Assembly: GCA_027452215.1 (NCBI GenBank)
Contig: DAIDGQ010000045.1
Span: 1 to 64,000, forward strand
Direction: 5' to 3'
From: Granulicella sp.
Lineage (GTDB): Bacteria > Acidobacteriota > Terriglobia > Terriglobales > Acidobacteriaceae
Length of the DNA: 64,000 nucleotides
How positions within the stretch are numbered: the stretch's first letter is position 1; every line of letters begins with the position of its first letter. The notes beneath the pieces were generated by a model that had not been told where the DNA came from, searched no databases, and saw only the letters and a program-made list of their open reading frames with translations. A program made the position numbers and the translations under genes. Positions 27,949-49,189 of this stretch are shown in pieces.

Positions 27949-29532
27949 TCAATGCGTCTTCACCATCGCCTCTGCCAGCGAGTGCAATCCGTCCTCATTC
28001 CCCGCCCTGGTATAGAACATATGCCCTCCCGGAAACTCATGCACCGACACCTGCCCCGCCAGCTTTGCCGGAAGCTCATTCTGCGTCAGCACCGACCCCA
28101 TAAACGGGCACGACAAGTCATTCCATCCATGCACAATTAGCACATTCAGCTTAGGATCCGCCGCCACCGCCTCGCGAAGATCGCTCACCGCTCCCTGCCG
28201 CAGCGCCGGCCCCTGCCGGTCCCACAGCCTGCCCACGTCATACGACAGAGCATAGTACCGCGCCTCCGTCTTCCACCCCACCGTGTTCGTAATAAAGTTC
28301 ACCATCGCCGTCGTCGTCGGAGCAATAATGCTCTCTAAAATCGGGTCATTCGACTCCTGCTCCGGAGAGTAAGGAAATGGGTCCGGCAGCGTCACATTCG
28401 AGTCATACACCGATCCAATCTCGCCCTTCTCCCTGTGCACCTCCCGCAGGTACGCTCCCGTCTCCAGCCTCCCACCCGAGTACCGCACAAACATCGGGTC
28501 CAGCCCCGTCATCTCCGTCACCTTCGAGATCATCCCGTCCGTCGCCGCCTTATCCGCCGGCCCCTTGATCAGCGCCGTCGCATACTCTCCCTCCGTATAC
28601 CCAATCACGTCCCGCATCGCCGCGTCCGTCAGCTTCCCCTCCGCCTCCAGGTGCGCCGCCGTAATCGACGGCAGCGTAATCATCCACGGCACCGGAGACA
28701 GATTCCCATCTCCAAAACTCGGGTTCAGATAAGGACTCACCAGCACCACGCCATTCATCGCCACGCCAATCTGCGACTGCAGATAATGCGTCATCCTCGG
28801 AACCCGGTACCCTCCATAGCTCTCGCCCATCAGGTACTTCTTATCCAGCATCCGGTCATTCTTCACCAGCCACTTGTAGATCACCAGCGACAGGTACTGC
28901 ACATCCTCCGTCGGAGCATAAAACAGCTTCTTGGCCTCCGCCTCATCCACCAGAGCCTTCGAAAATCCCGTCCCGATCGGATCGATAAACACCTCATCGG
29001 TAAAGTCCAGCCACGTCCCCGGATTATCCGTCAGCGTCGCCGGATCGCTCGCCGAATCGCCCGCATTCGCAAACGAAATATGCTTCGGCCCCACCGCTCC
29101 CAGGTTCAAATACACACTCGAAGCCCCCGGCCCTCCATTCACCGCAAACATCACCGGCCGGTCTGCCTCCCCCTTCTCTTTATCGACGACGTAGGCCGTA
29201 TACATTACGTCGCCCGTCGGCTTGCCCATCGCATCCTTCAGATGGATCGTCCCCACCGTAGCCGTATAGTGCAGCGTCTTCCCATGCACCGTAATCGTCT
29301 GCGCAATCGACTTGTCCTCAGGCAATCCCGCAGGAGCAGTCTCCGCCTTCCCCGCCCCCTTCGCCTCGGGCTTGGCATCCCCCTTCGCCTCGCCACTCTT
29401 CGCCGCATCACTCTTCGCCGCATCGGCAGCAACGGCGGGCTTCTCTCCCCGCCCTCCACGCTGCGATAGCGCAGCCACAGGAACACTCAGCAACAAAAGG
29501 GCAGGAACAACACGTCGCAAGATCATACGCAT
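27949..29532 (-). CDS. Secreted serine carboxypeptidase-like (peptidase S10 family)
   Basis: NGGPGASSVYLNLGAVGPK, LMGESYGGYRVPRM, HGWNDLSCPF, FPGGHMFY; start at MRMILRRVVPALLL. Confidence 0.88.
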   Translation of the reverse strand: MRMILRRVVPALLLLSVPVAALSQRGGRGEKPAVAADAAKSDAAKSGEAKGDAKPEAKGAGKAETAPAGLPEDKSIAQTITVHGKTLHYTATVGTIHLKDAMGKPTGDVMYTAYVVDKEKGEADRPVMFAVNGGPGASSVYLNLGAVGPKHISFANAGDSASDPATLTDNPGTWLDFTDEVFIDPIGTGFSKALVDEAEAKKLFYAPTEDVQYLSLVIYKWLVKNDRMLDKKYLMGESYGGYRVPRMTHYLQSQIGVAMNGVVLVSPYLNPSFGDGNLSPVPWMITLPSITAAHLEAEGKLTDAAMRDVIGYTEGEYATALIKGPADKAATDGMISKVTEMTGLDPMFVRYSGGRLETGAYLREVHREKGEIGSVYDSNVTLPDPFPYSPEQESNDPILESIIAPTTTAMVNFITNTVGWKTEARYYALSYDVGRLWDRQGPALRQGAVSDLREAVAADPKLNVLIVHGWNDLSCPFMGSVLTQNELPAKLAGQVSVHEFPGGHMFYTRAGNEDGLHSLAEAMVKTH

Positions 29533-29735
29533 TACTCTACCTCCTGCACCCCTCCTCAAGCCATCCCACACCCCACCTTCGTCCTTCGCGCTTCAGTCCA
29601 TCACTGCCACGCTGTCTAGACCGAAGCTCTCCAGACCGAAGCGAAGTCCCGCAGCGAGTCGGCGCGCAAGTGGCCGCTGCTCCGGTCAAGCGTACGCTAC
29701 CACCGCCGAATTGAAGTGACCCACCAAGGAGCAGC

Positions 29736-32700
29736 TTACGGGGCGGTGGGGACAGGCTGGAGTGGAGTGAGCGTCGGTGCAGCGAGGCCGAAGAACATGG
29801 TGATGGCGTAGACATTTTGATTGGAGACCCAAAGGTTGCCGGAGCGGTCGGGAGCGATGCTGAAGGGGGCGTTGAGGGAGGCGTCGAGACCGAAGCCCCC
29901 GACAGAGTAGACGCCAGTGGACGGAGACAGGGCGGTGGCGGAAGAGGCAGAGCTGTTCCCTGCGATCTCCGTGATAGAGGCAGAAGCAAAGTTGGTGAAC
30001 CAGGCGTTCTGGGCGGCGTCGACGGCAACCATCGCCGGATGGTTGATGCCACCCGTGACGACGTTCGTATAAAGAATGGTCCCGTCAGGCGCGATATCAG
30101 CAAAGGAACCCTCGCTGGACGAAGAGGACGATGAGGCGCCCCCCAGATAATCGGCTACCCAGACATTCCCCAGCGCATCGGTGGCAACACCGTTGGAGAG
30201 CTGGCAGCAGTTGGGATTGCTGAGGAGCTGGCCATTGGGGAAGGTCGGAGTGGGGGCGGAGATGTGAGCGACCGTATTGCCTCCCGGGAGCCAGAAGCCA
30301 TGCTGTGCGTCAATCGCAATAGCGACCGGAACCAGGGCGAGCCCCTGGCTGAGACCGAGATTGGCGGAGACGAGCGCGGCGGTTGGGGAGTAGACGGTGG
30401 CGGAGGGAGGGCCGGTGTTGACGATGAAGATGTTACCGTTCGTATCGGCGGCAACGGCGTCGGGAAAGTTGATGTTTGTGGTGTAGCCGGTGGGCTGGGG
30501 AGAGACGCCGATCTGGCTGGAGCGGGCGCCGTAGAACTCCACGACGTTGCCGCTGCCGCCTCCGCCGTAGCCATTCTGGTTCGTGATCCAGATGTTGTCG
30601 GAGGGGTCGATGGCGATTCCGTTTTCCTGAATGATCTCGGTGTGGTCGGTGGCACCATAGCCGGTGGCGCTGAGGGGAGTTCCCTGGGCGTTGAAGGCGG
30701 AGATCGGGCCAGCCTGATTGGCTACCCAGACGTTGTTAAGGCTGTCAACGGCAAGCGCGGTGGGGGAGGAAAGACCGCCTCCAGTAACGGTGAGAGACAT
30801 GGTCCAGTCGTTAGGGGACTGAAGTAGAGTGGTGGCGAAGGGTGGCGTCGCGGGGAGGGTGGCGAAGACGGCGGCGACGTTCTGGCCGGGGTGTTTGACG
30901 ATGTTGAGGGCGGCGGTGAAGACGTCGGAGGGTGCGGTGCCTCCTGACGGGGTGGCGGCGGTGAAGAGCGGGTTGCAGGTGGAGCCACTGGCTGAGGAGG
31001 CGCACGAGTTGAGCGCGTCAGCGAGGGCGTTGAGCTTGCCGGCTTCGATGGATAAGGTGGCGGGGAGGGTGGCGACGGTGCCGTTGGCGGGGTTGGCGAG
31101 GAGAGCGGCGTCGAGGAAGGCGTTGGTGATTCCGAGGATGTTGGTGGACGTGGCCCCGATGCTGGTGGCAGAGGAGGTGAAGGGGGAGAGCGCCCAGGCG
31201 GCGGCGGCGGTGGTGAGCTCGTTGAGGGTGAAGAAGGGGGTGGTGGCGAGGTTAGTGCAGGGGCCGACGGCGGCGACCAGGACGATCGCGGGGTTTCCGC
31301 TGGTGGAGGTGGTGGAGGTGCTTCCTCCGGTGGCGACGAGGTAGACCTGGTTGCTTCCGGAGGGGATGGGCTGGCCGGAGCTGCTCTGGCCGCAGGTGTA
31401 GTTTCCGGCGAGGTTGAACATGCCAATGGTATCGGTGACGACGGGGGCGACAAGCATGGGCGTGGCGGCAGAGCCGTTGCCGGTGCTACCGACTGTGTAG
31501 AGCTGGATGGTCGCGCCGGACACGGGCTGCTGACCGCTGAGGACCTGACCCTGGAAGACGACGGCGGTGACGGAGAGGGAGAGGGTGGCGGTGGCCTTGT
31601 TGCCGTTGGCGTCCGTGACCTGGACGGTGAACGGGACGGAGGACTCTCCGGCGGTGGGGGTTCCGGTGATGGCTCCGGCGGGAGTGAGGGTGAGGCCGAC
31701 GGCGCTGAGGCCAGTTCCGGAGGTGACAGTCCAGGTGTAGCCGGAGCCGCTGCCGCCCGTGGCGGCGAGGGTGGCGGTGTAGGGGGTTCCCTCAGTTCCG
31801 GAGGGAAGCGAGGTGGTGGTGACGGAGAGAGCGGGAACGATGGTGAGGGTGAGGCTGGCGGTGGCGGTGTCGTTCTGGGAGTCTGTGACCTGCACGGTGA
31901 AGGTGGCGGTTCCGGCGACGGGGGTGGCTGCGGAGAGGACTCCTGCGCTGGAGAGGGTGAGGCCGAGGGAGGAGAGGCTGGAGGCTCCGCTGGTGACGGC
32001 CCAGGTGTAGCCGGTTCCGCTGCCGGAGCTGGCGGTGAGGGTCTGCGAGTAGGCCGCTCCGACGATTCCGGGGGGAAGGCTGGCGGTGGTGATGGTGAGG
32101 ACGGGATAGAGGATGGTGAGGGAGAGGGTTGCGGAGGCCGTGTTTCCGGCGCCGTCGGTGACCTTGACGGTGAGCGGCGAGGAGGTCTCCTCGGTGGTGG
32201 GAGTGCCGGTGATGGCTCCTGCGGGTGAGAGGGTGAGGCCGACGGCGCTGAGGGCGGTTCCGGAGGTGACGCTCCAGGTGTAGCCGGAGCCGCTTCCTCC
32301 GGTTGCCGAGAGCGCGGAGGCGTAGGCGATTCCGACGGTGCCGTTGGGAAGCGTGGTGGTGGCAACGGTGAGGGCCGGATAGGCGATGGTGAGAGCGAGG
32401 GTGGCGGCGGCCTGGTCTCCGAAGCTGTCGGTGACGGTGACGGTGAAGCGGGAGGCGGTCTCGGCGGAGGTGGGGGTTCCGGCGATGGCTCCGGAGGGTG
32501 AGAGGGTGAGGCCCGCGGCGCTGAGAGCGGTCCCGGAGGTGACGGCCCAGGTGTAGCCGGTTCCCGTTCCTCCGGTGGCGGTGAGCGTGGTGGCATAGGA
32601 GGTTCCTACGGTGCCGGCGGGGAGGGTCGTCGCGGTAGTAATGGAGAGTTGGGGATAGACGACGGCGAGGGTGTAGGTGGCGCTGGAGGTGAGCGCGGGG

Positions 32701-33359
32701 GAGCCAGAGTCGGTGAGGGTGGCGGTGAAGATGACGTTGCCAGCTGCAGTCGGCGAGCCCGAGAGGACTCCGGTGGTGGGGCTGAGGGTGAGGCCGGCGG
32801 GGAGGGTTCCCTGCGTGATGGACCAGGTGTACGGAGCGATGCCACCGGCTCCGGCGAGGGTGGTGGAATAGGGCGTGCCGAGGACGGCTCCGGGGAGAGC
32901 TCCGGGAGCGGTGGCGATGGAGAGATTGGCCGCAATGTTGAGCGTGAGGACCCTGGTGAGGCTGGGGCTGGCGATGGACGCGACCGTGAGGGTGACGGCG
33001 AAGGGAGTTGCGACGGTGGCGGGAGCGGTGTAGGTGACGGCGGTGGTCGAGGAGTGGGTGAGGCTTCCGCAGGAGGTGGCGCAGGTGGCACCGGTGAGGG
33101 TCCAGGTGACTCCGGCGCTGTTGGCGTCGTTGACGACGGAGGCGGTGTAGGTGACGGAGTCGCCGGGATCGATGGTGGAGGCGGTGGGGCCCAGGAGGGT
33201 GATGGAGGTGGGAGTGATGTTGGCGGTGGAGGAGCCTCCGCAGCCGAGGAGAGAGGCGATGAGTGTGACGGTGAGGCCAGCCAGGACAGCCGGTTTGCGG
33301 AGGGCAGCGGAAGGAGTGCTGCGGATGAGGAGGGTGCTCCACACGGAACGAAGACGCAA
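29736..33359 (-). CDS. Lipoprotein with five putative-Ig (He_PIG-like) repeats and an NHL-type beta-propeller
   Basis: Lipobox-like LLGCGGSS; tandem LPxGTxGxxYxxTLxATGGSGxGYTWxVTSG repeats; AVDSLNNVWVANQAGPISAFN propeller repeats. Confidence 0.85.
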   Translation of the reverse strand: MRLRSVWSTLLIRSTPSAALRKPAVLAGLTVTLIASLLGCGGSSTANITPTSITLLGPTASTIDPGDSVTYTASVVNDANSAGVTWTLTGATCATSCGSLTHSSTTAVTYTAPATVATPFAVTLTVASIASPSLTRVLTLNIAANLSIATAPGALPGAVLGTPYSTTLAGAGGIAPYTWSITQGTLPAGLTLSPTTGVLSGSPTAAGNVIFTATLTDSGSPALTSSATYTLAVVYPQLSITTATTLPAGTVGTSYATTLTATGGTGTGYTWAVTSGTALSAAGLTLSPSGAIAGTPTSAETASRFTVTVTDSFGDQAAATLALTIAYPALTVATTTLPNGTVGIAYASALSATGGSGSGYTWSVTSGTALSAVGLTLSPAGAITGTPTTEETSSPLTVKVTDGAGNTASATLSLTILYPVLTITTASLPPGIVGAAYSQTLTASSGSGTGYTWAVTSGASSLSSLGLTLSSAGVLSAATPVAGTATFTVQVTDSQNDTATASLTLTIVPALSVTTTSLPSGTEGTPYTATLAATGGSGSGYTWTVTSGTGLSAVGLTLTPAGAITGTPTAGESSVPFTVQVTDANGNKATATLSLSVTAVVFQGQVLSGQQPVSGATIQLYTVGSTGNGSAATPMLVAPVVTDTIGMFNLAGNYTCGQSSSGQPIPSGSNQVYLVATGGSTSTTSTSGNPAIVLVAAVGPCTNLATTPFFTLNELTTAAAAWALSPFTSSATSIGATSTNILGITNAFLDAALLANPANGTVATLPATLSIEAGKLNALADALNSCASSASGSTCNPLFTAATPSGGTAPSDVFTAALNIVKHPGQNVAAVFATLPATPPFATTLLQSPNDWTMSLTVTGGGLSSPTALAVDSLNNVWVANQAGPISAFNAQGTPLSATGYGATDHTEIIQENGIAIDPSDNIWITNQNGYGGGGSGNVVEFYGARSSQIGVSPQPTGYTTNINFPDAVAADTNGNIFIVNTGPPSATVYSPTAALVSANLGLSQGLALVPVAIAIDAQHGFWLPGGNTVAHISAPTPTFPNGQLLSNPNCCQLSNGVATDALGNVWVADYLGGASSSSSSSEGSFADIAPDGTILYTNVVTGGINHPAMVAVDAAQNAWFTNFASASITEIAGNSSASSATALSPSTGVYSVGGFGLDASLNAPFSIAPDRSGNLWVSNQNVYAITMFFGLAAPTLTPLQPVPTAP

Positions 33360-33430
33360 GGCTGGCCTCTGGAGTAAAAAATGATGGATATCGCCGTAAT
33401 TCTACGCTAGAGGTGGGAGGGAAGCTGAGG

Positions 33431-35158
33431 TTAGTGGGCCTCCAGCTCGATTTTGCCCATGAGCCTGGGTGGGCGCTTGAGCAGCACGACCAGGGGAATG
33501 AGGGCGGCGAGCATGTAGGCGAACATGCGGTACTGGTCCATGTACGCGAGGAGCTCGGCCTGGCGCTGGACCTGTCCGTAGAGCAGGGCGAGGCCGGCGT
33601 AGGCGTTGTCGGACGCGGAGCCGCTGGAGGCGAGGGAGCCGTGGACGACCGCGAGGCCGGCGGCGGCCCGTGCGGCGAGAGGGTTGGAGGCGTTGATGTG
33701 CGCTCCGAGATAGGCCTGGTGGGTCTGGGCGGCTCGCTCGAGGAAGGTGCTGGAGATGGCGATGCCGATGCTTCCTCCTTCGTTGCGGACGAGGGCGTAG
33801 ATTCCGGCAGCGTTGCTGCTCTGGTCGGTGGGGAGAAAGCGGAACATGATTGTACTGAGCGGTACAGTTGTCATGCCGAGGCCGAGGATCTGCACAACAC
33901 GGGGCCAAATGAGGTTGGACTCGGCCATGTCGAGGTTGCCGAGGGAGAGCCACCAGGTGCCGAGGGCGATGGTGGTGATTCCGGCGGCGATCATGCGGCG
34001 GGCGTCGAAACCTCGGCTGAGGGCCCAGCCGACGAGCGGAACTTCGATCATGGTGACCAGGCCGGCGGGAGAGACGGCGATTCCGGCGGCGGTGGCCGAG
34101 TAGCCCATGAGCAGCTGCATGAACTGCGGAAGGAGGAAGGTGGTGGCGTAGAGAGCGGTGTAGACGCCGAGCACGATGGTGCAGCAAATGAGGAAGTTGC
34201 GCTCCTTGAGGAGGCGGAGGTTGACGACGGGGTCCTTGACGTAGAGCTCCCAGACGACGGCTCCGGAGAGGGCGACGAGGGCGATGGCGGCGCTCCAGGC
34301 GATGAAGGTGGAGCCGAGCCAGTCGAGCTCCTGGCCCTTGTCGAGGACGATTTCGAGGGAGGCGAGGCCGATGGCGATGAGGGCGAGGCCAGTGCCGTCA
34401 ATGCGCAGCTTTTTGCCCTTCATGGCGAGACGCTTGGCGGTGAGGGCGATGGGATCGACCAGCACCATGCGGGTGAAGAAGGCGCAGGCGATGCCAACGG
34501 GGATGTTGATGTAGAAGATCCAGCGCCAGGAGTAGTTGTCGGTGATCCAGCCGCCGAGGGTGGGGCCGAGGACGGGAGCGCAGAGGATGGCGACGGTGTA
34601 GACGGCCATGGCCATGCCACGTTTGTTGCCGGGGAAGGCGTCGGCGAGGATGGCCTGGACGGAGGGCTGGAGGCCTCCTCCGGCGAGGCCCTGCATGACG
34701 CGGAAGACAACCAGCAGGCCGAGCGTAGGGGCCAGGCCGCAGAGCGCGGAGAAGACCGTGAACATCACGACTGAGATGAGATAGAAGTTTTTGCGGCCGA
34801 TAACCGAGGAGATCCAGCCGCTGATGGGCAGGATGATCGCGTTGGCGACGAGGTAGCTGGTGAGGACCCAGGTGCTTTCGTCCTGCGAGGCGGAGAGCGA
34901 ACCGGCGATGTGGGGGAGAGCGACGTTGGCGATGGAGGTGTCGAGGACCTCCATGAAGGTTCCCATGGTGACGACGAGGGCGATGATCCAGGGGTTGAAG
35001 ACTCTGGGTGCGGGGGCGTGCGCGGTGGCTGTTGCGAGAGGTTCGCCGGGCTCGAATTCGGAGGCGCTGGGGGCGAGGGAGGACTCGGCGCGGTCGAGGG
35101 ATTGCTCGAGGCCTTGTGGTTCGATCTCCGGTTCTTCGAGGACTGACCCGCCGGTCAT
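33431..35158 (-). CDS. DHA2-family MFS efflux transporter (EmrB/QacA-like)
   Basis: 14-TM pattern; MEVLDTSIANVALPHIAGSLSASQDESTWVLTSYLVANAIILPISGW. Confidence 0.92.
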   Translation of the reverse strand: MTGGSVLEEPEIEPQGLEQSLDRAESSLAPSASEFEPGEPLATATAHAPAPRVFNPWIIALVVTMGTFMEVLDTSIANVALPHIAGSLSASQDESTWVLTSYLVANAIILPISGWISSVIGRKNFYLISVVMFTVFSALCGLAPTLGLLVVFRVMQGLAGGGLQPSVQAILADAFPGNKRGMAMAVYTVAILCAPVLGPTLGGWITDNYSWRWIFYINIPVGIACAFFTRMVLVDPIALTAKRLAMKGKKLRIDGTGLALIAIGLASLEIVLDKGQELDWLGSTFIAWSAAIALVALSGAVVWELYVKDPVVNLRLLKERNFLICCTIVLGVYTALYATTFLLPQFMQLLMGYSATAAGIAVSPAGLVTMIEVPLVGWALSRGFDARRMIAAGITTIALGTWWLSLGNLDMAESNLIWPRVVQILGLGMTTVPLSTIMFRFLPTDQSSNAAGIYALVRNEGGSIGIAISSTFLERAAQTHQAYLGAHINASNPLAARAAAGLAVVHGSLASSGSASDNAYAGLALLYGQVQRQAELLAYMDQYRMFAYMLAALIPLVVLLKRPPRLMGKIELEAH

Positions 35159-35178
35159 AGTTATGACTCCTTGGTCAT
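35154..35178. promoter_or_regulatory. Candidate TetR operator in the divergent MFS/TetR region
   Basis: GTCATAG/TTATGAC palindrome overlapping the MFS start codon, followed by a further GGTCAT half-site. Confidence 0.5.
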
Positions 35179-35239
35179 TGGATCAGGAAAAGGCTCTGCG
35201 GGATTCAGCCGGGGCGAGAAAACGTGCTAGTTTGATTGC

Positions 35240-35887
35240 GTGAAGGCTATTGCCGCAAATCGGGCACCAACTCGGACGCCAACCCGTAAACAGGTGCTGA
35301 CCGATATGCGGCGCCAGGAGATTCTTGCGGCTGCGATCAAGGTGTTTGGAAAGAAAGGGTTTGCGGCGACCTGCGTGGGGGATGTGGCCGACGCGGCGAA
35401 GATTGCCAAGGGAACGGTGTATCTGTACTTCGAGTCGAAGGAGGAGATTTATGCGACGGCGGTGCAGCTGGCTGTCGCGCAGTTGCAGGAGGTGGCGGCG
35501 GAACGGATTCGGCTGGTGAGTGGGGTGAGGGAGCGGCTGGCCGTCGCGATCGCGGTGCGGATGGAGTTCTGGCACGAGCAGCTGAATCTGTACCGGCTGC
35601 TGCTGACGGTGGGGAGGGAGGCTCGGCACAAGCGCCAGACGAACGAGGTGCTGCGGTCGGGGCATGGGCATTTTCTGCGGATTCTGGAGGAGGGAGCGGC
35701 CGCCGGGGAGCTCGAGCCTCGGGACTTCGACACGGTTGCGTGGGCGATTCTGGATATGATTCGCGGGTGCAATGAGCGGAGGATGGATCACCTGACGGAG
35801 CGCACTCCGCAGCAGGATGCGGAGACGATTACGGCGTTCGCGCTGCAGCAGCTGGGGCTCTCCAAGGAGAGCCCGGGCAGGCGCTAG
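35240..35887 (+). CDS. TetR/AcrR family transcriptional regulator
   Basis: RRQEILAAAIKVFGKKGFAATCVGDVADAAKIAKGTVYLYFESKEEIY. Confidence 0.93.
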   Translation: MKAIAANRAPTRTPTRKQVLTDMRRQEILAAAIKVFGKKGFAATCVGDVADAAKIAKGTVYLYFESKEEIYATAVQLAVAQLQEVAAERIRLVSGVRERLAVAIAVRMEFWHEQLNLYRLLLTVGREARHKRQTNEVLRSGHGHFLRILEEGAAAGELEPRDFDTVAWAILDMIRGCNERRMDHLTERTPQQDAETITAFALQQLGLSKESPGRR

Positions 35888-38061
35888 TTGGGCATTAGTT
35901 TGCGGGTGAGGTAGATGTAGGTGAGGGCCCAGGTGTTGGCTTGCTCCTGGAGGTTGGCTCCGGCGGCGTGGCCTCCTTCGATGATTTCGTCGTAGTAGAA
36001 GGGGTCGTGGAACTCCTCCATCTTGGCGGCGAATTTGCGGGCGTGCTGGGGGCCGACGCGGTCGTCCTTGGTGGTGGTGAAGATGAGCGGCTCGGGGTAT
36101 TGGACTCCGGGCTTGAGCTGGTTGTAGGGAGAGATTCCGGCGAGGAACTCACGCTCTGCGGGGACGGAGACAGAACCGTATTCGCCGACCCAGCTGGCTC
36201 CGGCGGCGATGTGCTCGAAGCGCAGCATGTCGAGGAGCGGGACCTGGATGACGATGGCGTTCCAGAGGTCGGGGTGCTGGGTCATCTCGACTCCCATGAG
36301 GAGGCCGCCGTTGGAGCCTCCCATGATGCCGAGGTGCTGGGGCGACGTGATCTTGCGGGCGATAAGATCTTCTCCGACGGCGGCGAAGTCGTCGTAGATT
36401 CGCTGGCGGTGGGTCTTGAGGCCGGCCTCGTGCCAGGCGGGGCCGAACTCCCCTCCTCCTCGGATATTGGCGAGGACGTAGGTACCTCCGTGCTCGAGCC
36501 AGAGCTTGCCGATGTTGGCGGAGTAGGCGGGCGTCTCGGAGACCTGGAAGCCGCCGTAGGCATTGAGTAGAACGGGGTTGGCGGCGTTGAGCTGCATGTC
36601 CTTCGGATGGACGATGAAGTAGGGGATCTTGGTACCGTCTTTGGAGGTGGCTTCGTACTGCTCGACGACGTCCTTGGAGGCGTCGAAGCGGGCGGGCTCA
36701 GTCTTTTCGAGGGTGAGGGTGGTGGCGACCGCGTCGCCGAGATAGAGCGAGGAGGGGGTGAGGAAGCCGGTGATGCCGAGGAAGAAGTTGTCGTCGGTGG
36801 AGCTGGTGGAGACAATGTCGACGCTGACGCTTTCAGGGACCGGGAGCTGCTTGCGGGACCATCCAGCGAGGCCGGGAGTGTAGATGTAAGCGCGGCCCTG
36901 GACGTGATTGAGCGTGGTGAGGAGGAGGCGCGAACGGGTGATGGCGGTGTCCTGAAGGAACTCGGTCGCGGTAGGCTCGAAGACGATGGAGGGCTTGAGG
37001 CTGGATGGATTTTTGAGGACGTCGGAGAGCTTCATCTCGAGCAGCGAGCCCTGCTTGTAGGTGATGAGCTGGCCTTCGGGCTTCCAGTCTTCGTCGAGGG
37101 TGAGGAGGACGCGGCCGTCGATGAGGCCGGAGATGTTGGACTTGGCGGGGATATTGAGCTGTTTGGGACCGTTGGGGGTGAGGACGAAGGTCTGGCTTTC
37201 GAAGAACGTGACGCCACGAACGAAGAGGGTGAGGGAGTGATTTTTGGCGTCGTGGAGAGTGCGGCCTCCGGCGCTGATGTCAGTGTCTTTGCCGCGGAAG
37301 ATCTCCTTTGCGGAGTCGAGCGGAGTTCCCCTCTTCCATAGCTTGACGATGAACGGGTAGCCGGAGGTGGTCATGCTGCCCGGGCCCCAGTCGCGCGAGA
37401 CGATGAGGGTGTCTTTGTCGAGCCAGCTGACCTCCTGCTTGCTGTGCGGGAGGGTGAAGCCGGCTTCGACAAACTTGCCAGATTTGAGATCGAACTCGCG
37501 CTGGGTATCAGCGTCCTCGCCGCCGGCGGAGAGGACGACCATGCAGTAGCGGTCGCCGGGATAGAGGCAGTCGACGCCGTGGGCGACCCACTTGACGTTG
37601 TCCTGCCTGCCGAGCGCGTCATAGTCGAGAACGGTTTGCCAGGCGGGCTGGGGAGTCAGGTAGCTGGCGAGGGATGTCTTGCGGAAGATGCCGTTGACGT
37701 GGTCGGCGTCTCGCCACAGGTTGTAGATTTCGCCACCGATCTGCTCGGGGGTGGGGAGGCGGTCCGGGGCCTGGGCGATCTTGAGAGCGTCGGCGTGGTA
37801 GGCGGCGTAGCGGGGATCGGCTTCGAGGACTTTCAGAGAACGGGCGTCCTCCGCTTTGACCCAGTCCATGGAGCGGGCGCTGGAGACGTCTTCGAGCCAG
37901 AGGTATTTGTCGGAGGAGGAGGAGGTGCCGGAGTCGGGGGTGTCGGCGGAGTGGGTGGCTGGCTGCTGGGCGGCGGCTCGAGGGGCAGGAGTGAGGGCGG
38001 CGAGGAACAGTGCGGCGAACAGCGGTGCGGGCGAGGAACGGAAACCCTTCAACATCTTCAC
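35884..38061 (-). CDS. Prolyl oligopeptidase family serine peptidase (S9A), secreted
   Basis: YLWLEDVSSARSMDWVKAED; GIMGGSNGGLLMG; DDRVGPQHARKFAAKM; EGGHAAGA. Confidence 0.93.
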   Translation of the reverse strand: MKMLKGFRSSPAPLFAALFLAALTPAPRAAAQQPATHSADTPDSGTSSSSDKYLWLEDVSSARSMDWVKAEDARSLKVLEADPRYAAYHADALKIAQAPDRLPTPEQIGGEIYNLWRDADHVNGIFRKTSLASYLTPQPAWQTVLDYDALGRQDNVKWVAHGVDCLYPGDRYCMVVLSAGGEDADTQREFDLKSGKFVEAGFTLPHSKQEVSWLDKDTLIVSRDWGPGSMTTSGYPFIVKLWKRGTPLDSAKEIFRGKDTDISAGGRTLHDAKNHSLTLFVRGVTFFESQTFVLTPNGPKQLNIPAKSNISGLIDGRVLLTLDEDWKPEGQLITYKQGSLLEMKLSDVLKNPSSLKPSIVFEPTATEFLQDTAITRSRLLLTTLNHVQGRAYIYTPGLAGWSRKQLPVPESVSVDIVSTSSTDDNFFLGITGFLTPSSLYLGDAVATTLTLEKTEPARFDASKDVVEQYEATSKDGTKIPYFIVHPKDMQLNAANPVLLNAYGGFQVSETPAYSANIGKLWLEHGGTYVLANIRGGGEFGPAWHEAGLKTHRQRIYDDFAAVGEDLIARKITSPQHLGIMGGSNGGLLMGVEMTQHPDLWNAIVIQVPLLDMLRFEHIAAGASWVGEYGSVSVPAEREFLAGISPYNQLKPGVQYPEPLIFTTTKDDRVGPQHARKFAAKMEEFHDPFYYDEIIEGGHAAGANLQEQANTWALTYIYLTRKLMPN

Positions 38062-38162
38062 ACTCCGGGAGGCCTTGCGGCGTCTGACGCTACTGTATCG
38101 CGGATGGACGGAGCCGAGGGAGCTCGTGCTGAAGTTTCCGGGTTCGGGGGGGGGGCGTGGCC

Positions 38163-40469
38163 TCAGGGGCGCTGGCCGGGCTGGAGGGCTGAGAGGGGGG
38201 TAACGGTGGGGGCCGCAACCCCGATGATTTCGGTGACGGAGTTGGAGGACTGGTTGGGGATCCAGACGTCGCCAGAGGCGTCCACGGCGAGGAAAGAAGG
38301 ATTGTTGAGTATGCCTCGCTGATAGCCGTAGTACCCGGTGATGGGGGCTCCGGAGCTGTTGAACTCCGAGAGAGCATAGGAGTTACCGGAGTTGGTGATC
38401 CATAGGTCATTGTTGCCATCGATGGCTATCCAGGTCGGATACGAGAGGCCACCTACGCTATAGCCACCGTAGCCATTGGCCTGACCTGACGGTGTAAACG
38501 CGGCGACATAGCCGATGAGCTGCAGAGCGACCCAGCCATTGCCATTTCGGTCGATTGCGATGTTCCCGGGCGCAAACAACTGGTTGCTATAGCTAAACGT
38601 GGCAGCACCCCCGGGGTTCGATACACGGCATCCGGAATTGGCAGAGTTGGCCGTCGCCCAGATGTAGCCGCTCGGATCGATGGCGATCTGCGAGACGCCC
38701 GCCAGACAGTTGTTGCTGATGGAAGTGTTGAACGAGACGATCGGAGCCGACGTGGCAGAGTTGTTGAACTTCCGCACGCTGGATGACCCTCCGCCGTAGC
38801 CACCATAGTAGCCGCCATAGCCGAATCCACCATAGCCACCGCCGTCGGTGACATACACGTAACCATTGCTATCGACAGCCACGGAGGTCGGGGAGTTCAT
38901 CTGCGGGGAGGTCCAGGGAGACCCGCTCACCGCGCCGAGGCTGCTGGTATAGGCGTACAGGGCGTTTGAGTTTCCCGCCGTGACGAAGATGTTGTCGCCG
39001 GAATCGATGGCAACCGAGTTGAAACCGCTGCCTCCAGTGGCGCTGGTGGCGAGGACGGCTCCCGCGGGCGAGAGCTTGGTGATGTAACCGGACGTGGAGT
39101 TGGTCGGGACGAGCGCGTTGCCGAGGCTGTCGATGGCAATGCTGCCGGGAGAGGGGATGTTGTTATAGCGGATCGCGACGGTAAAGTCGGTGGGCCTGGA
39201 AGTGAGCGCAGGAGAGAACGGAACAATGCCCCCGGGAAGGTCCCAGAGTTTGAGGACGTTCGTTGCTCCGGGGTTCTTGGAGATGTAGATCAGAGCGGTC
39301 GCGGTGTCTTTGGGCTTGGTGCCGCCGGGAGTTCCGTTACTTGTGGCGGAGCCAAAGAGGGTATTGCAGGTGGCGGAGGAGGCAGAGGCAGTGTTGGGAG
39401 AGTCGACGCAGGAAGCGAGAATGTTGGCGAGGGTGTCAAGCTCAGCCTGGGGGACGGTGCCGTTGCCGGCGGGCGTGATCTCGTTGGCGATCTGGCCTTC
39501 TCCGGCGTGCTGGGGGCCCAGCGGAGCTCCCTGAATGTTATAGAGGCTGGCCGCATTAAGCGTGGCATTCTGTAGGCCGATAAGATTAGTGGCTGAGCTT
39601 CCGACATGCAGGGCGTCCGAGGCGAAGCCGGACATCGCATAGCCGAATGCCACGGTCGAGACCTCGTTGACGTAGACGTACGCAATGGCGCTAGGACCGG
39701 TAGCAAAGTTTCCAACCTCGGGGCAAAGGCCGAGCATCGCGAGGTTGACGATGGAAGGATTGGTCACTCCTACCGAGATGGCCGATCCCGCCTGGGTATC
39801 AGCTCCGCTGCCGGGTGCGATGGGCGTGGAGATCACGAAGGTCGAGGCGGTGGGAGTCGCGAGGACGGTCTGCGTGGTGCCATTCAGGGTGGACCACTTG
39901 CCGCCCAGGCTGGAACTCGTGAACTGGACGCTCTGCCCGGTGTAGAGCTGGTTGGCGGCGGTAAACGTGTAGGTCGAGATGCCGCTCGAAGAGGTGGAGG
40001 AGATGGCCGTGATGGTTAGAGGGAAGCTGACGTTGGGAGAGCCTCCCGCGGTGTAGAAGTAGACGGGGTCACCGACGTCGCAGGTGTAATCTCCGGTGAC
40101 ATTGAAGCCTCCGGAGGCGTCGGAGGTCATGTAGTAGAGACCGTAGGTGGGGCTGCCGGGAACGAGATCCTGAGTGACGGGATAGGTGGAGCTGGTGGCA
40201 GTGGAGGAGGCCGAAAGCAGGGACTTTGCCATGGTGGCATAGCCGGTGGAGGAGGTTCCTGAGGCGGTGGCCTCGAGCAGAAAGACGTGCGAGGCCACGA
40301 TGGGGGCGTGACCTCCGAAGACGCTGCCGCGAAGGTGTCCAATGGAGGCCTGTGCGGGCGTAGGTGGAAAGCGGACTCCGGCCATGCCAGAGCAGCCGCT
40401 CAGAATCAAAGCGGCGGCGGTGAGCGCGAAGGTGAGGACTACGGAGAAGGCTTGGATGACGACCCCCAT
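38163..40469 (-). CDS. Lipoprotein with NHL-type beta-propeller (paralogue-like to 29736..33359)
   Basis: Start at MGVVIQAFSVVLTFALTAAALILSGCSG (lipobox); IAIDGNNDLWITNSG, FLAVDASGDVWIPNQSSNSVTEIIGVAAPTVTPLS. Confidence 0.8.
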   Translation of the reverse strand: MGVVIQAFSVVLTFALTAAALILSGCSGMAGVRFPPTPAQASIGHLRGSVFGGHAPIVASHVFLLEATASGTSSTGYATMAKSLLSASSTATSSTYPVTQDLVPGSPTYGLYYMTSDASGGFNVTGDYTCDVGDPVYFYTAGGSPNVSFPLTITAISSTSSSGISTYTFTAANQLYTGQSVQFTSSSLGGKWSTLNGTTQTVLATPTASTFVISTPIAPGSGADTQAGSAISVGVTNPSIVNLAMLGLCPEVGNFATGPSAIAYVYVNEVSTVAFGYAMSGFASDALHVGSSATNLIGLQNATLNAASLYNIQGAPLGPQHAGEGQIANEITPAGNGTVPQAELDTLANILASCVDSPNTASASSATCNTLFGSATSNGTPGGTKPKDTATALIYISKNPGATNVLKLWDLPGGIVPFSPALTSRPTDFTVAIRYNNIPSPGSIAIDSLGNALVPTNSTSGYITKLSPAGAVLATSATGGSGFNSVAIDSGDNIFVTAGNSNALYAYTSSLGAVSGSPWTSPQMNSPTSVAVDSNGYVYVTDGGGYGGFGYGGYYGGYGGGSSSVRKFNNSATSAPIVSFNTSISNNCLAGVSQIAIDPSGYIWATANSANSGCRVSNPGGAATFSYSNQLFAPGNIAIDRNGNGWVALQLIGYVAAFTPSGQANGYGGYSVGGLSYPTWIAIDGNNDLWITNSGNSYALSEFNSSGAPITGYYGYQRGILNNPSFLAVDASGDVWIPNQSSNSVTEIIGVAAPTVTPLSALQPGQRP

Positions 40470-40637
40470 GATTGGCGCGGTGAGACTCAGCCTGGCTGCG
40501 CGGTGTCTCGGTGACAAGCAGTAGGGCAGGCACGGTGCGTGAGGCACGGTGACAGCGACTGGACACTATGGGAGGTATCGGCAGATGGGACTGGGAACTT
40601 TAGCCTGTGGAGATATTAGGAGGGGAGAAACGAGCCT

Positions 40638-40661
40638 GGGCCGGGCAGTGTTGCCCGGCCC
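40638..40661 (-). terminator. Hairpin terminator downstream of the S10 peptidase
   Basis: GGGCCGGGCA-gtgt-TGCCCGGCCC perfect 10-bp stem. Confidence 0.65.
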
Positions 40662-40685
40662 TGACGGATGGTCATTCGTGGAGGG

Positions 40686-42350
40686 TTATTGACCTTTTTC
40701 GTTGTCGCGAATGAACTCGGCGGTGCGGTCGCGCAGGCCGGTGCGGGCCTCGGGGTTGACGTAGACCATGTGGCCGGTCTGGAAGAACTTGTAGGCGATG
40801 TTCTTCTGCAGGCTGGCGGGGATCGGAAGGTGCTTCATCTCGTACGTAGCTCCGAAGTAGAGGGTGCCGAGATCGAAGTAGCCACCCATGAGCAGGATGT
40901 GCATCTTCGGGTTGACCTTCATGGTGTAGGCGAGGTCGGCCTCGACGTTGGAGCTCGTTCCGGGCCAGCCACCTTCACCGCTGGGAGACTTGACGGCCAT
41001 GTCCCAGTTCCAGCCGCTCATGCGGGCGCTGGGCTCGTAGGTGAGGTTCTGGCCGAAGTTCAGGGTGGTGTGGGCGTAGGTGTTCATGGCGGACTGGATG
41101 GCGGACTCGATGGACTCGGTGAAGGGGTCGTAGTCGGTCTCGGAGTTCATGGGGTTCATGCTGGGGCCGTTCCAGCGGGAGTCCAGGCGGCCGGTTGTCT
41201 CGCCGGTGCTGCCGAGGAGGTCCTGGGCGAACTGCCCTCCCGTGAGACGAAGGTTCGCCTTAACCCACGTCGCGGCGGGGATTCCGGTGTAGCTCTCGAG
41301 CTTGGCGGCGACAGCAGCCTTTTTGGTTGCGTCGAGGTCGGCTCCCTGGAGGAGAGCGCTAGCGTAATCGCCGAGCGAGAACTGCTCGACCTCATGCAGC
41401 CAGGGTTCGAGTTGGGCGGGCTGGCCGGGGACCTTGTGGTGATACCACGCCGTGGCGGCAAAGCTGGGGAGCGCGAGATAGAAGCCGTTGTCGGTGCCGG
41501 GGTTGCCGTCCGAGCCGTCGGCGGAGTCGTCAAAGCTCAATATCTGGGAGAGGAAGACGACGCCGTTCAGATCGACGCCGTGGTGTTGCAGAGCGGCGGA
41601 GAGCGCGGCGTCGCGGGTGGTGCCGTAGCTCTCACCGAAGAGGAACCGCGGCGAGTTCCAGCGGTCGTACTTGGTGAGGAAGCGGCGGATGAAACGCTGG
41701 AAGGCGGCGGCGTCCTGATCGATGCCGTAGAAGGCCTTGTTGGCGTCCTTGCCCATGACGCGGCCGTAACCGGTGCCGGGGGCGTCGATGAAGACGAGGT
41801 CGGCGGTGTCGAGGAGAGTGTCCTCGTTGGGCACGATTTTGTAGGGGCCTCCGGCGGGATGGTCGAGGTCGGGGAGGACGACGCGGACGGGGCCGAAGCT
41901 GGCCATGCGCAGGTACATAGTGGCGGAGCCGGGACCTCCGTTGTAGATGAAGACGACGGGGCGGGTGGCGGCGTCGACGCCTTTGGCGAAGTAGGCGGTA
42001 TAGAACATGGTGGCGGTGGCGGGACGGTCCTCGGGCTTGGCGGGGAGCTCCACTCCGGAGTCGGGAAGGAGCTTGCCGTCGAGGCCGAGCATGGCGTCCT
42101 GCGCGTCGGTGGCTCCGACGGTGATGAGGCCGGCGACGGCTTTGTAGGCGATGGTCTTGCCTCCCGCGGTGACGGAGCCTTCAGTGACGGAGTCGGGCGT
42201 GGTCGCGACAGACTTGGGGGGCTCGGTGGCGGCGGTGGTCGTGGTAGTGGTGGTTTTGTCGGCGTGATGGTCCTGCGCGAGGGCGGAGGTGGCGAACAAA
42301 ACGGCGGCTGCTGAGAGACAAGTGAACGTGCGTCGAACCGGTGAAGACAT
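40686..42350 (-). CDS. Secreted serine carboxypeptidase-like (S10 family), second copy
   Basis: NGGPGSATMYLRMASFGPVR, LFGESYGTTRDAA, TGHMVYVNPEAR. Confidence 0.88.
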   Translation of the reverse strand: MSSPVRRTFTCLSAAAVLFATSALAQDHHADKTTTTTTTAATEPPKSVATTPDSVTEGSVTAGGKTIAYKAVAGLITVGATDAQDAMLGLDGKLLPDSGVELPAKPEDRPATATMFYTAYFAKGVDAATRPVVFIYNGGPGSATMYLRMASFGPVRVVLPDLDHPAGGPYKIVPNEDTLLDTADLVFIDAPGTGYGRVMGKDANKAFYGIDQDAAAFQRFIRRFLTKYDRWNSPRFLFGESYGTTRDAALSAALQHHGVDLNGVVFLSQILSFDDSADGSDGNPGTDNGFYLALPSFAATAWYHHKVPGQPAQLEPWLHEVEQFSLGDYASALLQGADLDATKKAAVAAKLESYTGIPAATWVKANLRLTGGQFAQDLLGSTGETTGRLDSRWNGPSMNPMNSETDYDPFTESIESAIQSAMNTYAHTTLNFGQNLTYEPSARMSGWNWDMAVKSPSGEGGWPGTSSNVEADLAYTMKVNPKMHILLMGGYFDLGTLYFGATYEMKHLPIPASLQKNIAYKFFQTGHMVYVNPEARTGLRDRTAEFIRDNEKGQ

Positions 42351-42462
42351 GCTGACTCCAGTGCTGAAGATGTGAAAGGGATCCCAACGTTGCAGGAGTG
42401 CAGTATACCCGTTTGGCCGCGGGTGCTACTCTCATCTGCAAACTATTCAGGAGCCTCTTTCG

Positions 42463-44433
42463 ATGCGTTTCCATCGCAGCTTACCCGGAATTTTCCTGTC
42501 GCTTACAACGCTTGCGGTGGCTGGAGCACAGGCTCCGGCGCGGCACGCTTACACGGTGCATGACTGGGCTGCGTCGCGCAGCGCGGCTCCGGTGGCGGTG
42601 TCGCCGGAGGGTACGACGATTCTCTATCGCGTGGCGTATGGCGCGGAGAGTGGGCCGGGAGGACGCGAGTTCTGGTTCATTCATCCGGACGGCACGGGAG
42701 CGGTGAAGCTGACGCTGCCGGAGGGATTTTCGCCGGAGGGATTCATGCCGAGTGGCGGCGCTCTGTATGGCTCGTGGAAGGTGAATGGAGCTCCGCAGTT
42801 TGCGGTGTTTGCGATGAAGGGAGAGACGGCCGCGGCGGCTCCGATGACGCTGGTGGTGCTACCTCGCGGGGTGGACGGGATGCTGCCGTCGCCGGATGGA
42901 ACGCAGTTTGCGCTGCTGGCCGATCCTCGATTGCCGGATGCTCTGGACGCGACGAGGACGGTGATTGAGCCGGAGCAGACGAGTCTTTACGTGGTGCGTG
43001 CGGATGGCACGGGAGGAGCGTGGGCTTGCACGGCGGTGCATGACCTGGCGGGAGGCGAAGGCGCGCAGGGACTGCCGGTGGCGTGGTCTCCGGATGGAAC
43101 GGAGCTGGTGCTGCTGTCGAGCACGACGAAGATTGGCAACCACGAGATGCACTCGCAGCTTGATCTTTGCGCCGTGACTGCGGGTGCTGTGAGTGCGGGC
43201 TCGGCTGCAGGTGAGCTGCGGCATGTGGCGACGGTGGATAATTCGGTGTCGTCCGTGGTGTTTGCGGGAGCGGGGGAGATTGCGTTTCTGAGCACGGATG
43301 CTCCGACGCAGACGCCGGAGCATCTGTACTCCGTGGCGGCGAACGGCGGTGCGGTGACGGACCGGACTCCGCAGCTGGCGACGACGGCGAACGCGGTGGG
43401 CGCGGACGGGCACGGGAATATCTTCGTGGAGATCGCGCATGGTGTTCGCAATGAGGTGGACAGCTATCGCGATGGTAGATTGACGCTGGCGTATGCGTGG
43501 CCGGAGGGCGGTGTGGGCCTGCCGACTTCGTCGCCTTATAAAAATGCGGCGGCGCAGATGGCATTCGCCGTGAGTGATCCGACGCATACTGCGAATGTCG
43601 CTGTGGCGAGTGGGAGCGAGCTGCGGCGCATCACCAGCGAGGGGGAGAAGGCGCTCGAGCATGTGGAGCTGGGGCCGGTGCGCGTGGTGCATTGGAAGAG
43701 CAGGCAGGGCGTTGCGCTGGAGGGCATTGCTACGTTTCCTGCGGGGTATGTGGAGGGGAAAAAATATCCGTTCCTGGTGCTGCCGCATGGTGGCCCGGAG
43801 TCGAATGACCGGCTGGGGCTGGACCCGTTCGCGCGCAGCATTGCGGGGCTGGGGTACGTGGTGCTGCAGCCGGAGTACCGCGGGTCTACGGGATATGGCG
43901 ACGCGCATCTGGCCGCGATCTATCAGCACTTTGGCGATCGAGCGTATGAGGATGTGGACTCCGCGACCGACTTTGCGGTGGCGCAGGGGTGGGCCGATCC
44001 GCAGCGGCTGGCGATCTTTGGATGGAGCGCCGGAGGGTTTATGACGTCGTGGACGGTGACGCAGACGCACCGCTACAAGGCGGCGATTGAGGGCGCGGGC
44101 ATTACGGATTGGGGCTCGTTTATTTTTACGAGCGATGTGTATCAGACGGACTTCGACGCTCGGTGGCCGGAGGAAGATCCTGATGCGTTCACGAAGTTTT
44201 CTGCCGTGGACTTCGCGAAGAATGTGACGACGCCTCTGCTGATCCTGCATGGCGCTGCCGATGTGCGCGTGCCGACGTACCAGGGGCGAGAGTACTTCGA
44301 GGTGCTGGCGGCTCGCGGCAAGGTGACTCGGATGGTGACGTATCCGGGGTCGCCGCACTTCCCTTCCCTGTGGCAGCAGCGGATCAATGTGTTCGATGAG
44401 ATTGGCGCGTGGCTGGCGAAGTACAACCCATAA
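42463..44433 (+). CDS. S9 family peptidase (DPP/acylaminoacyl-peptidase-like), secreted
   Basis: LPHGGPESNDRLGLDPFARSIAGLGYVVLQPEYRGSTGYG; IFGWSAGGFMTSW; HGAADVRVP; GSPHFP. Confidence 0.92.
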   Translation: MRFHRSLPGIFLSLTTLAVAGAQAPARHAYTVHDWAASRSAAPVAVSPEGTTILYRVAYGAESGPGGREFWFIHPDGTGAVKLTLPEGFSPEGFMPSGGALYGSWKVNGAPQFAVFAMKGETAAAAPMTLVVLPRGVDGMLPSPDGTQFALLADPRLPDALDATRTVIEPEQTSLYVVRADGTGGAWACTAVHDLAGGEGAQGLPVAWSPDGTELVLLSSTTKIGNHEMHSQLDLCAVTAGAVSAGSAAGELRHVATVDNSVSSVVFAGAGEIAFLSTDAPTQTPEHLYSVAANGGAVTDRTPQLATTANAVGADGHGNIFVEIAHGVRNEVDSYRDGRLTLAYAWPEGGVGLPTSSPYKNAAAQMAFAVSDPTHTANVAVASGSELRRITSEGEKALEHVELGPVRVVHWKSRQGVALEGIATFPAGYVEGKKYPFLVLPHGGPESNDRLGLDPFARSIAGLGYVVLQPEYRGSTGYGDAHLAAIYQHFGDRAYEDVDSATDFAVAQGWADPQRLAIFGWSAGGFMTSWTVTQTHRYKAAIEGAGITDWGSFIFTSDVYQTDFDARWPEEDPDAFTKFSAVDFAKNVTTPLLILHGAADVRVPTYQGREYFEVLAARGKVTRMVTYPGSPHFPSLWQQRINVFDEIGAWLAKYNP

Positions 44434-44463
44434 CGCAAAGGCAAGCCCCGCGGCCAGGGAGCG

Positions 44464-46272: not shown

Positions 46273-46417
46273 GGAATCTCCTGCAACTACGAGGATGGAA
46301 CTACTGTACGGGATGACGCGTCCAATCAGGGAGTTGCCGCGTGTACATCGGTGCGCGCTAGACTGTTCGCTGCAGCTCGAAACGGTTTGCTGAGCTTAGA
46401 GACGTGGGAGAGATGGT

Positions 46418-47746
46418 ATGCGTGTTGGCCTGATGACCCGGGAGTATCCGCCGTATGTGTACGGCGGCGCAGGGGTGCATGTGGAGTATCTGTCGCGCGA
46501 GCTGGCGAAGACGATTGAGGTCGATGTGCATGCGTGGGGAGAGACTCCGGAGGCCGAGAGCCTGCGCGATCCGCAGCTTCCGCATGGAGCTCATCTGCAG
46601 ATTCACTTTGAGCAGCCGTGGCCGCTGATCTCGCATGGCACCGACGCGAAGTTCAAGGGAGCGCTGGAGGCGCTGTCGCTGAACCTGCTGCAGAATCTGC
46701 ACCTGGAGAAGCTGGACGTCATTCATACGCATACCTGGTATGTCGCGATGGCGGGGTTTCTGGCGAAGAAGCTGTATGGGATTCCGTTTGTGCTGACGAC
46801 GCATTCGCTGGAGCCGCTGCGGGCGTGGAAAGCCGAGCAGCTGGGCACGGGCTATGCGCTGAGTTCGTGGATGGAGCGGACGGCGATTCTGGATGCCGAC
46901 GCGATTGTGGCGGTGTCGAATGGAACGAAGGACGACATCGTGAAGGCGTATCCGGATGTGGATCCGAGCAGGATTCATGTGATCTATAACGGCATCGACC
47001 TGCAGCAGTATCAGTACACGGAAGACGTGAGCGCGCTGAAGAAATACGGCGTCGATACAGAGAAGCCGTACGTGCTGTTTGTGGGGAGGATTACTCGGCA
47101 GAAGGGCGTGACGCACCTGGTGGAGGCGATCCAGTATCTTCCTCCGGGGACCCAGATTGTGCTGTGCGCGGGAGCTCCGGATACCCCGGAGATTGCTACC
47201 GAGATGCGCGAGAAGGTAGAGGCCGTGCGAAGGTTCACGCCGGGAAGCCAGCGCGCGGTGGTGGAGAATTTTACGGCGGATGGAGGGCACTCCACCGCTA
47301 CCGGAGACCCGACGGGAACCGGGCATAACCTTGTCTGGATTGAGCAGATGGTGACCAAGGAAGAGGCGATTCAGCTGTACTCGCACTGTGCCGTGTTCTG
47401 CTGCCCGTCGGTGTATGAGCCGTTCGGGATTATCAATCTGGAGGCGATGGCGTGCAGAGCTCCGGTGGTCGCGAGCGCTACGGGAGGGATTCTGGAGGTC
47501 GTGGTGGAGGGCCAGACCGGTCACCTGGTGCCGTTCGAGGCGGATCCGGTGACGACGTTCCCGATGGATCCGGCACAGTTTGCGAAGGACCTCGCGAGGC
47601 GCATCACCGACCTGCTGAACGATCCGGAGAAGGCACAGCGAATGGGCGATGCGGGACGCAAGCGCGTCGAGGAGCACTTTTCGTGGACAGCGATTGCAGC
47701 TCAGACGATCGAGCTGTATGAGAGCCTGATCGCGAAACGAGCCTAG
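46418..47746 (+). CDS. glgA: Glycogen synthase / GT-B glycosyltransferase (GT4-like)
   Basis: MRVGLMTREYPPYVYGGAGVHVEYLSREL; VVATHSLEPLRAWKAEQLGTGYALSSWMERTA-type motif; PSVYEPFGIINLEAMA. Confidence 0.8.
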   Translation: MRVGLMTREYPPYVYGGAGVHVEYLSRELAKTIEVDVHAWGETPEAESLRDPQLPHGAHLQIHFEQPWPLISHGTDAKFKGALEALSLNLLQNLHLEKLDVIHTHTWYVAMAGFLAKKLYGIPFVLTTHSLEPLRAWKAEQLGTGYALSSWMERTAILDADAIVAVSNGTKDDIVKAYPDVDPSRIHVIYNGIDLQQYQYTEDVSALKKYGVDTEKPYVLFVGRITRQKGVTHLVEAIQYLPPGTQIVLCAGAPDTPEIATEMREKVEAVRRFTPGSQRAVVENFTADGGHSTATGDPTGTGHNLVWIEQMVTKEEAIQLYSHCAVFCCPSVYEPFGIINLEAMACRAPVVASATGGILEVVVEGQTGHLVPFEADPVTTFPMDPAQFAKDLARRITDLLNDPEKAQRMGDAGRKRVEEHFSWTAIAAQTIELYESLIAKRA

Positions 47747-49107: not shown

Positions 49108-49135
49108 AGCGTAAGGAGTAAGGAGTAGTGAATGG

Positions 49136-49163: not shown

Positions 49164-49189
49164 CTGTTGGTGCACTCGGTCGCTGAAGT

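What the first reader, a model, noticed from the sequence alone, without database searches (positions are those of the whole stretch)
29572..29735. Abrupt reversal of GC skew independent of gene orientation
Left of about 29.6 kb the plus strand is C-rich for genes on both strands; right of about 29.7 kb it is G-rich for genes on both strands. Hand counts of 60-nt lines: 28441 (minus gene) C28/G12; 12901 (plus gene) C25/G12; 30841 (minus gene) G32/C12; 43021 (plus gene) G29/C15. The switch occurs within one roughly 160-bp intergenic region. C-rich to G-rich polarity is what a replication origin gives, but no dnaA, DnaA boxes or partition genes are seen, so a recent inversion or rearrangement breakpoint is also likely. 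The region carries two GACCGAAGC motifs shared with the dispersed composite repeats, which could have mediated such an inversion. The skew weakens after about 46 kb and appears C-rich again past about 60 kb.
Basis: partly seen in the sequence, partly recalled or inferred. Interest (0 to 1): 0.75.

Follow-up and report, generated by a model that had tools for sequence, protein, structure and literature searches.

The report
Strand-bias reversal at a chromosome rearrangement seam
In a Granulicella-like soil bacterium the DNA flips abruptly from C-rich to G-rich where two chromosome pieces were joined; this is not the replication origin, but the flip marks an older, evolutionarily maintained zone of reversed strand bias near the origin that ordinary one-origin replication does not explain.

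Summary
The step is real: GC skew jumps from -0.39 to +0.33 at 29.6-29.7 kb, 7 SD and twice any other 5-kb step in 1.3 Mb of three related genomes, oriC included. Third codon positions of genes on both strands carry it. The window is the left end of a 263-kb contig of a Granulicella-like MAG. oriC is elsewhere (skew minimum at 250 kb, with dnaA-rnpA-yidC-dnaN). The 29,572-29,735 gap is a rearrangement junction: its left side ends homology to the 5' flank of a carboxypeptidase-like gene (next to glyA in relatives); its right side starts at the 3' end of an NHL/Ig-repeat gene, which in relatives faces tRNA-Gln-prs-rplY-rpsF-rpsR-rplI. The polarity reversal is older than the junction: three relatives flip at that prs locus. 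The reversed zone (29.7-59 kb) fades linearly to normal polarity by 85 kb; the zero crossing is at 58-61 kb in three species whose silent sites are nearly saturated. A relic-of-inversion model is rejected (delta logL 343-484), so reversed pressure has been maintained for most of the time since the split. Whether extra replication starts, recurrent inversions or another strand-asymmetric process maintains it is open.

The parts
29557..29739 (.). Rearrangement junction between the S10-like peptidase block (left) and the NHL block (right); site of the skew step
   Evidence: Homology to the S10 5' flank of UBA5172, L46 and L022 stops at about 29,556; homology to the NHL 3' end of L46, G012 and G007 starts at about 29,737-29,740
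29611..29640 (+). Two tandem 15-nt units ending in AGACCGAA, possibly a decayed fragment of the dispersed repeat GTCATCTCGACCGAAGCGAAGCGCAGCGGAGAGA
   Evidence: a role in recombination is inference only
27949..29571 (-). Peptidase_S10-domain protein; next to glyA in relatives
   Evidence: Pfam PF00450; 92% identical in UBA5172, 86% in L46; glyA flank PF00464
22996..27909 (.). Rest of the S10 block: NAGLU-type alpha-N-acetylglucosaminidase, acyltransferase-like, small protein (weak DUF1269 match); C-rich + strand
   Evidence: Pfam; contiguous with S10 in UBA5172 contig C125
7954..22175 (.). Left block, C-rich, collinear and in the same orientation with L46 C2 0.5-19 kb
   Evidence: GC3 skew of orthologues nearly equal
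29736..33359 (-). Large Ig/PKD/NHL-repeat protein at the edge of the reversed zone; its 3' end faces tRNA-Gln-prs in G012, G007 and (a paralogue) L46 C11
   Evidence: Pfam
29736..59500 (.). Reversed-polarity zone: G-rich although left of oriC; third-position skew falls linearly from +0.71 to 0
59500..64000 (.). Zero crossing and start of the C-rich (normal) part; the gradient continues to about 85 kb of the contig
   Evidence: zero at 59.5 kb (window contig), 61.2 kb (L46), 58.2 kb (G012) in window coordinates

Best explanation
Two things coincide at 29.6 kb. (1) Shown by synteny: the intergenic gap is a derived rearrangement junction. In the ancestor the NHL gene's 3' end faced a tRNA-Gln-prs-rplY-rpsF-rpsR-rplI cluster whose 5-6 kb have nearly neutral skew; in this lineage that cluster is gone from here and a C-rich S10-peptidase block is joined directly to NHL, so the flip became one knife-edge step. 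(2) Shown by comparison: the flip itself is older. The NHL block is the sharp edge of a reversed-polarity zone (29.7-59 kb) conserved in at least three species and kept at mirror-image equilibrium while silent sites were almost fully replaced. Inferred: the strand bias is the usual replication-linked one (G-rich leading strand), and this zone is usually copied, or otherwise exposed to asymmetric mutation, in the direction opposite to the oriC fork, starting at the NHL/prs boundary, with the linear fade being where the two directions meet.
For: Step size and strand independence. Junction homology ends on both sides; glyA upstream of S10 in UBA5172, L46 and L022. prs cluster and tRNA-Gln next to NHL or its block in G007, G012, L46 C11 and G003. 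prs cluster not found in this MAG. Same C-to-G flip at the prs locus in G012, G007 and L46 C11. oriC at 250 kb with dnaA, rnpA, yidC, dnaN; single dominant origin at the dnaA side in complete G011. Gradient conserved: r = -0.91 to -0.92, zero at 58-61 kb in three genomes. Fourfold sites nearly saturated with mirror composition; relic model rejected by 343-484 log units.
Against: The window is from a 59%-complete MAG, so a chimeric join cannot be excluded without reads. The reciprocal junction is not in the MAG. L46's link from the 450-615 kb segment to oriC runs through scaffold gaps. No replication-timing data exist. Flanking C-to-G sites only about 75 kb apart would need nearly simultaneous firing to behave as origins, which is unusual for a bacterium. 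G011 lacks the flip at prs and has its zones elsewhere.
Confidence: 0.7

Rival explanations
1. The step is the chromosomal origin of replication (oriC).
For: C-rich to G-rich polarity; local cumulative minimum at 29,725.
Against: dnaA, rnpA, yidC, dnaN and the contig-wide minimum are at 233-250 kb; no exact DnaA box anywhere on the contig and the weak box clusters are elsewhere; the step is twice as sharp as at the dnaA-side switches; the sequence at the step is lineage-specific.
Confidence: 0.03
2. A simple inversion inside one replichore: 29.7-60 kb was flipped and still carries its old skew as a relic.
For: Local skew reversals are generally read as inversions (PMC6220195); genomes here are much rearranged.
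Against: Gene order and orientation through 40-84 kb are conserved in relatives with no breakpoint at 59 kb; the fade is linear, not a step; silent sites show maintained, not decaying, reversed composition.
Confidence: 0.12
3. The junction is an assembly chimera joining two parts of the chromosome.
For: MAG; junction absent from every relative examined; abnormal skew steps are a known sign of misassembly (PMC7717575).
Against: Junction lies cleanly between two genes with no long repeat in the DNA held; no Ns in the contig; window left-block genes also lie 12 kb outside NHL in G012, so the wider neighbourhood is plausible.
Confidence: 0.15
4. Extra replication initiation or restart at the NHL/prs boundary (and at about 104 kb) makes skew domains like eukaryotic N-domains.
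For: Several C-to-G switches and gradual G-to-C fades on one contig and in L46 and G011; reversed polarity is maintained; fades lie nearer the distal switch, as staggered firing would give.
Against: No replication data; no shared sequence at the switches was demonstrated; timing is hard for a bacterial fork; several switches lie at long paralogous genes (NHL, TonB/carboxypeptidase-regulatory type), which suggests rearrangement.
Confidence: 0.2
5. Recurrent inversions between paralogous genes keep the block mostly in the opposite orientation, and the assembled orientation is the rarer or newer one.
For: Switches at NHL and TonB-like paralogues; L46 has NHL copies on two contigs and C2 ends in one; best fit allows up to about 20% of time in normal orientation.
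Against: Does not give a linear fade inside an unbroken block; the assemblies examined show the same gene order.
Confidence: 0.25

Closest known systems
GC-skew reversal marking inverted segments (Merrikh and Merrikh 2018, PMC6220195)
   Same: Local sign change of GC skew covering genes of both strands; linked to chromosome rearrangement.
   Different: Here the reversed zone is not inverted relative to its neighbour, fades linearly, and its composition is near equilibrium instead of decaying.
GC-skew disruption as a misassembly or translocation signal (SkewIT, PMC7717575)
   Same: A translocated or inverted piece breaks the skew plot at a join.
   Different: The flip is present in independent assemblies of relatives that lack this join.
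Replication skew N-domains of mammalian genomes (named in PMC4729899; details from general knowledge)
   Same: Sharp upward skew jump followed by a linear decline to the next jump.
   Different: Bacterial, about 75-150 kb instead of hundreds of kb to Mb, very strong skew, no evidence of several active origins.

Membership tests
Bacterial oriC | Main cumulative-skew minimum of the replicon | tested here: not met
   Contig minimum is at 250,378, not 29,725
Bacterial oriC | Adjacent dnaA/dnaN/rnpA/yidC genes | tested here: not met
   They lie at 232.8-240.3 kb of the contig
Bacterial oriC | DnaA-box cluster | tested here: inconclusive
   No exact TTATNCACA anywhere on the contig; no cluster at 29.6 kb, but none convincing at 250 kb either
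Rearrangement breakpoint | Flanks that are far apart in relatives | tested here: met
   S10 block at L46 C2 155-158 kb, NHL block at 590-615 kb; separate contigs in G007 and G012
Rearrangement breakpoint | Each flank keeps a different, conserved neighbour in relatives | tested here: met
   glyA beside S10; tRNA-Gln-prs cluster beside NHL
Rearrangement breakpoint | Junction supported by spanning reads | not testable with these tools
   No reads available
Skew relic of a within-replichore inversion | Reversed block inverted relative to its neighbour | tested here: not met
   Collinear through 40-84 kb in relatives
Skew relic of a within-replichore inversion | Silent sites decaying toward the local polarity | tested here: not met
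   delta logL 343-484 in favour of maintained mirror equilibrium
Replication N-domain | Sharp jump then linear skew decline | tested here: met
   r = -0.92 over 30-90 kb; zero conserved in three species
Replication N-domain | Active origin at the jump and termination zone in the slope | not testable with these tools
   Needs marker-frequency or fork-direction data

The most novel reading that the evidence does not exclude
A subclade of Granulicella replicates the several hundred kb around oriC from more than one start: besides the dnaA-side oriC, sites such as the tRNA-Gln-prs/NHL boundary regularly launch forks, producing bacterial skew N-domains with conserved fork-meeting zones.
Probability: 0.15. 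Interest if true: 0.92.

Novelty: new variant of a known kind. Interest (0 to 1): 0.55.

Why it matters
Local skew reversals in bacteria are routinely read as inverted DNA and used to infer how often genes flip. Here a reversed zone, without inversion of its genes, has been held near equilibrium for most of the time since the species split, with a fade located at the same genes in three species. Either these bacteria copy part of the chromosome against the oriC direction, or another strand-asymmetric process can imitate replication skew; both would limit the standard inference. The very strong, almost purely G-versus-C asymmetry (fourfold sites about 0.8 C to 0.07 G) makes polarity readable gene by gene, so the question can be tested directly in strain L46.

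Tried and rejected
oriC at 29.6 kb: rejected. Terminus at 59 kb: rejected, because oriC would be only about 190 kb away and the contig has a second fade near 155 kb. dif-like sites: none found. Transcription- or gene-orientation-driven skew: rejected, both strands behave alike. tRNA genes at the other switches: none; Rfam families: none in seven loci around them. GACCGAAGC as cause: only 7 copies against about 5.3 expected in the contig, and no long repeat at the junction. I first read the 29.7-105 kb block as simply inverted relative to L46; in an oriC-centred frame it is collinear, so I dropped that. Literature on skew in Granulicella: only genome papers with circular maps came up.

Full report
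What the window is. It is bases 1-64,000 of contig C45 (263,106 bp) of a metagenome-assembled genome of 2.53 Mb, 45 contigs, 59% complete. Its relatives are Granulicella: UBA5172 (handle G007; 92% for the junction peptidase), strain L46 (G009, 85%), MAG G5_15 (G012, 84%) and a single-contig 3.93-Mb genome, G011. Coordinates up to 64 kb are window coordinates; larger ones are on C45.

The observation. The skew is strong and flips exactly where stated. The step is 0.71-0.72 over 5 kb on each side, about 7 SD; the largest step elsewhere is 0.33 on C45, 0.35 in 615 kb of L46 and 0.36 in 500 kb of G011, the last at oriC. Third codon positions carry it, and genes of both strands agree. The asymmetry is nearly pure G versus C: fourfold sites are about 0.79 C and 0.07 G in the left block and 0.09 C and 0.76 G just right of the step, with A and T almost equal.

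Not oriC. The contig-wide cumulative minimum is at 250,378. dnaA (233 kb; TIGR00362), rnpA, yidC and dnaN (239-240 kb; TIGR00663) lie beside it. L46 and G011 switch at the same dnaA-side genes, and in G011 that switch at 2.149 Mb divides the sampled chromosome into a mostly C-rich and a mostly G-rich arm, with some wrong-polarity patches and a mixed stretch at 3.2-3.8 Mb.

A rearrangement junction. Upstream of the S10-type peptidase gene the window matches UBA5172, L46 and L022 only up to about 29,556; those continue into glyA. From about 29,740 the window matches the 3' end of the NHL/Ig-repeat gene of L46, G012 and G007. In G012, G007 and L46 contig 11 the gene (or a paralogue) faces tRNA-Gln(TTG), prs, rplY, rpsF, rpsR, rplI; in G. 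mallensis (G003, identified by its 6.24-Mb size and dnaA at the start, an inference) prs lies 5 kb from the same block. In L46 the two sides of the junction are about 450 kb apart. The glyA flank and the prs cluster were not found in this MAG, so the reciprocal join cannot be examined.

The flip is older than the junction. In G012 contig 91 the skew is -0.23 to -0.33 outside the ribosomal cluster, about zero in it, and +0.27 in the NHL block, then fades through zero to -0.24 over the same genes as in the window; window left-block genes even lie at its outer end. G007 and L46 contig 11 flip at the same cluster. Losing this neutral 5-6 kb spacer would explain why the window's step is so abrupt (inference).

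A maintained reversed zone. Relative to oriC at 250 kb the DNA at 29.7-59 kb has the wrong polarity; 60-104 kb has the right one. Gene order across 40-84 kb is unbroken in L46, G011, G003 and largely in G005, and across 30-66 kb in G012. Third-position skew falls linearly across the block and crosses zero at 59.5, 61.2 and 58.2 kb (window coordinates) in the window contig, L46 and G012 (r about -0.91; 0 of 10,000 permutations), whereas G011 crosses elsewhere and G003 has no gradient. Between the window contig and L46, fourfold sites in the reversed zone are nearly independent (kappa 0.11-0.14), yet both keep the reversed composition. Using normal-polarity genes to calibrate the substitution process, a relic that has been under oriC-normal pressure since the split predicts skew +0.13 to +0.19; observed +0.75 and +0.66; log-likelihood difference 343-484, with a best fit of 0-20% of the time under normal pressure. 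The calibration assumes stationarity in the reference genes and equal rates, but the margin is large.

What could maintain it. C45 has further switches near 104 and 250 kb and a second fade near 155 kb; L46 and G011 show similar sawteeth. Extra fork launching would give sharp jumps and gradual fades, but adjacent sites would have to fire almost together. Several switches lie at long paralogous genes (NHL; outer-membrane/carboxypeptidase-regulatory proteins beside rsfS at 105 kb), which favours recombination, but inversions alone do not make a linear fade in an unbroken block. I therefore commit to junction-plus-older-zone and leave the cause of the zone divided among recurrent inversion (0.25), extra initiation (0.2) and unnamed local asymmetry.

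Known work. Local skew reversal as inversion record (PMC6220195; challenged in PMC9098844, seen only as a search abstract), skew as an assembly check (PMC7717575), skew N-domains in mammals (PMC4729899, search abstract only). I found no description of such zones in Acidobacteria in the held library.

Limits.

Noticed in passing
C45:118-210 kb (loci L006-L011); L46 C2 391-507 kb; G011 2,104-2,115 kb: Hot spot between the same flanking genes: about 95 kb in the window's genome, about 116 kb of mostly different content in L46, only about 10 kb in G011. The window's insert includes a low-GC (0.55-0.58), nearly skew-free stretch of minus-strand genes at about 150-195 kb.
   Followed up: partly
window 25581-25668: Tandem 6-bp repeats (TTGCTTTTGC/TTTGCCTTTGC type); related arrays in L46 mostly follow local skew polarity.
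   Followed up: no
C45 (263 kb), L46 C2 (615 kb), G011 1.98-2.38 Mb: ARAGORN finds no tRNA gene in any of these oriC-flanking stretches, although it finds tRNAs in other loci of the L46 and G011 genomes.
   Followed up: partly
L136 (G012 C91) 3310-6333: MmeI-type restriction-modification protein just outside the prs cluster, next to a ferritin-like gene.
   Followed up: no
C45:210-222 kb versus L46 C2 380-391 kb: Orthologues with opposite polarity: 497 fourfold sites are C here and G in L46, 18 the reverse; shows how fast silent G/C sites turn over.
   Followed up: partly
L46 C2:615 kb end and L46 C11:197 kb (locus L168): NHL-repeat paralogues at a contig end and beside prs suggest recombination between NHL copies.
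   Followed up: no
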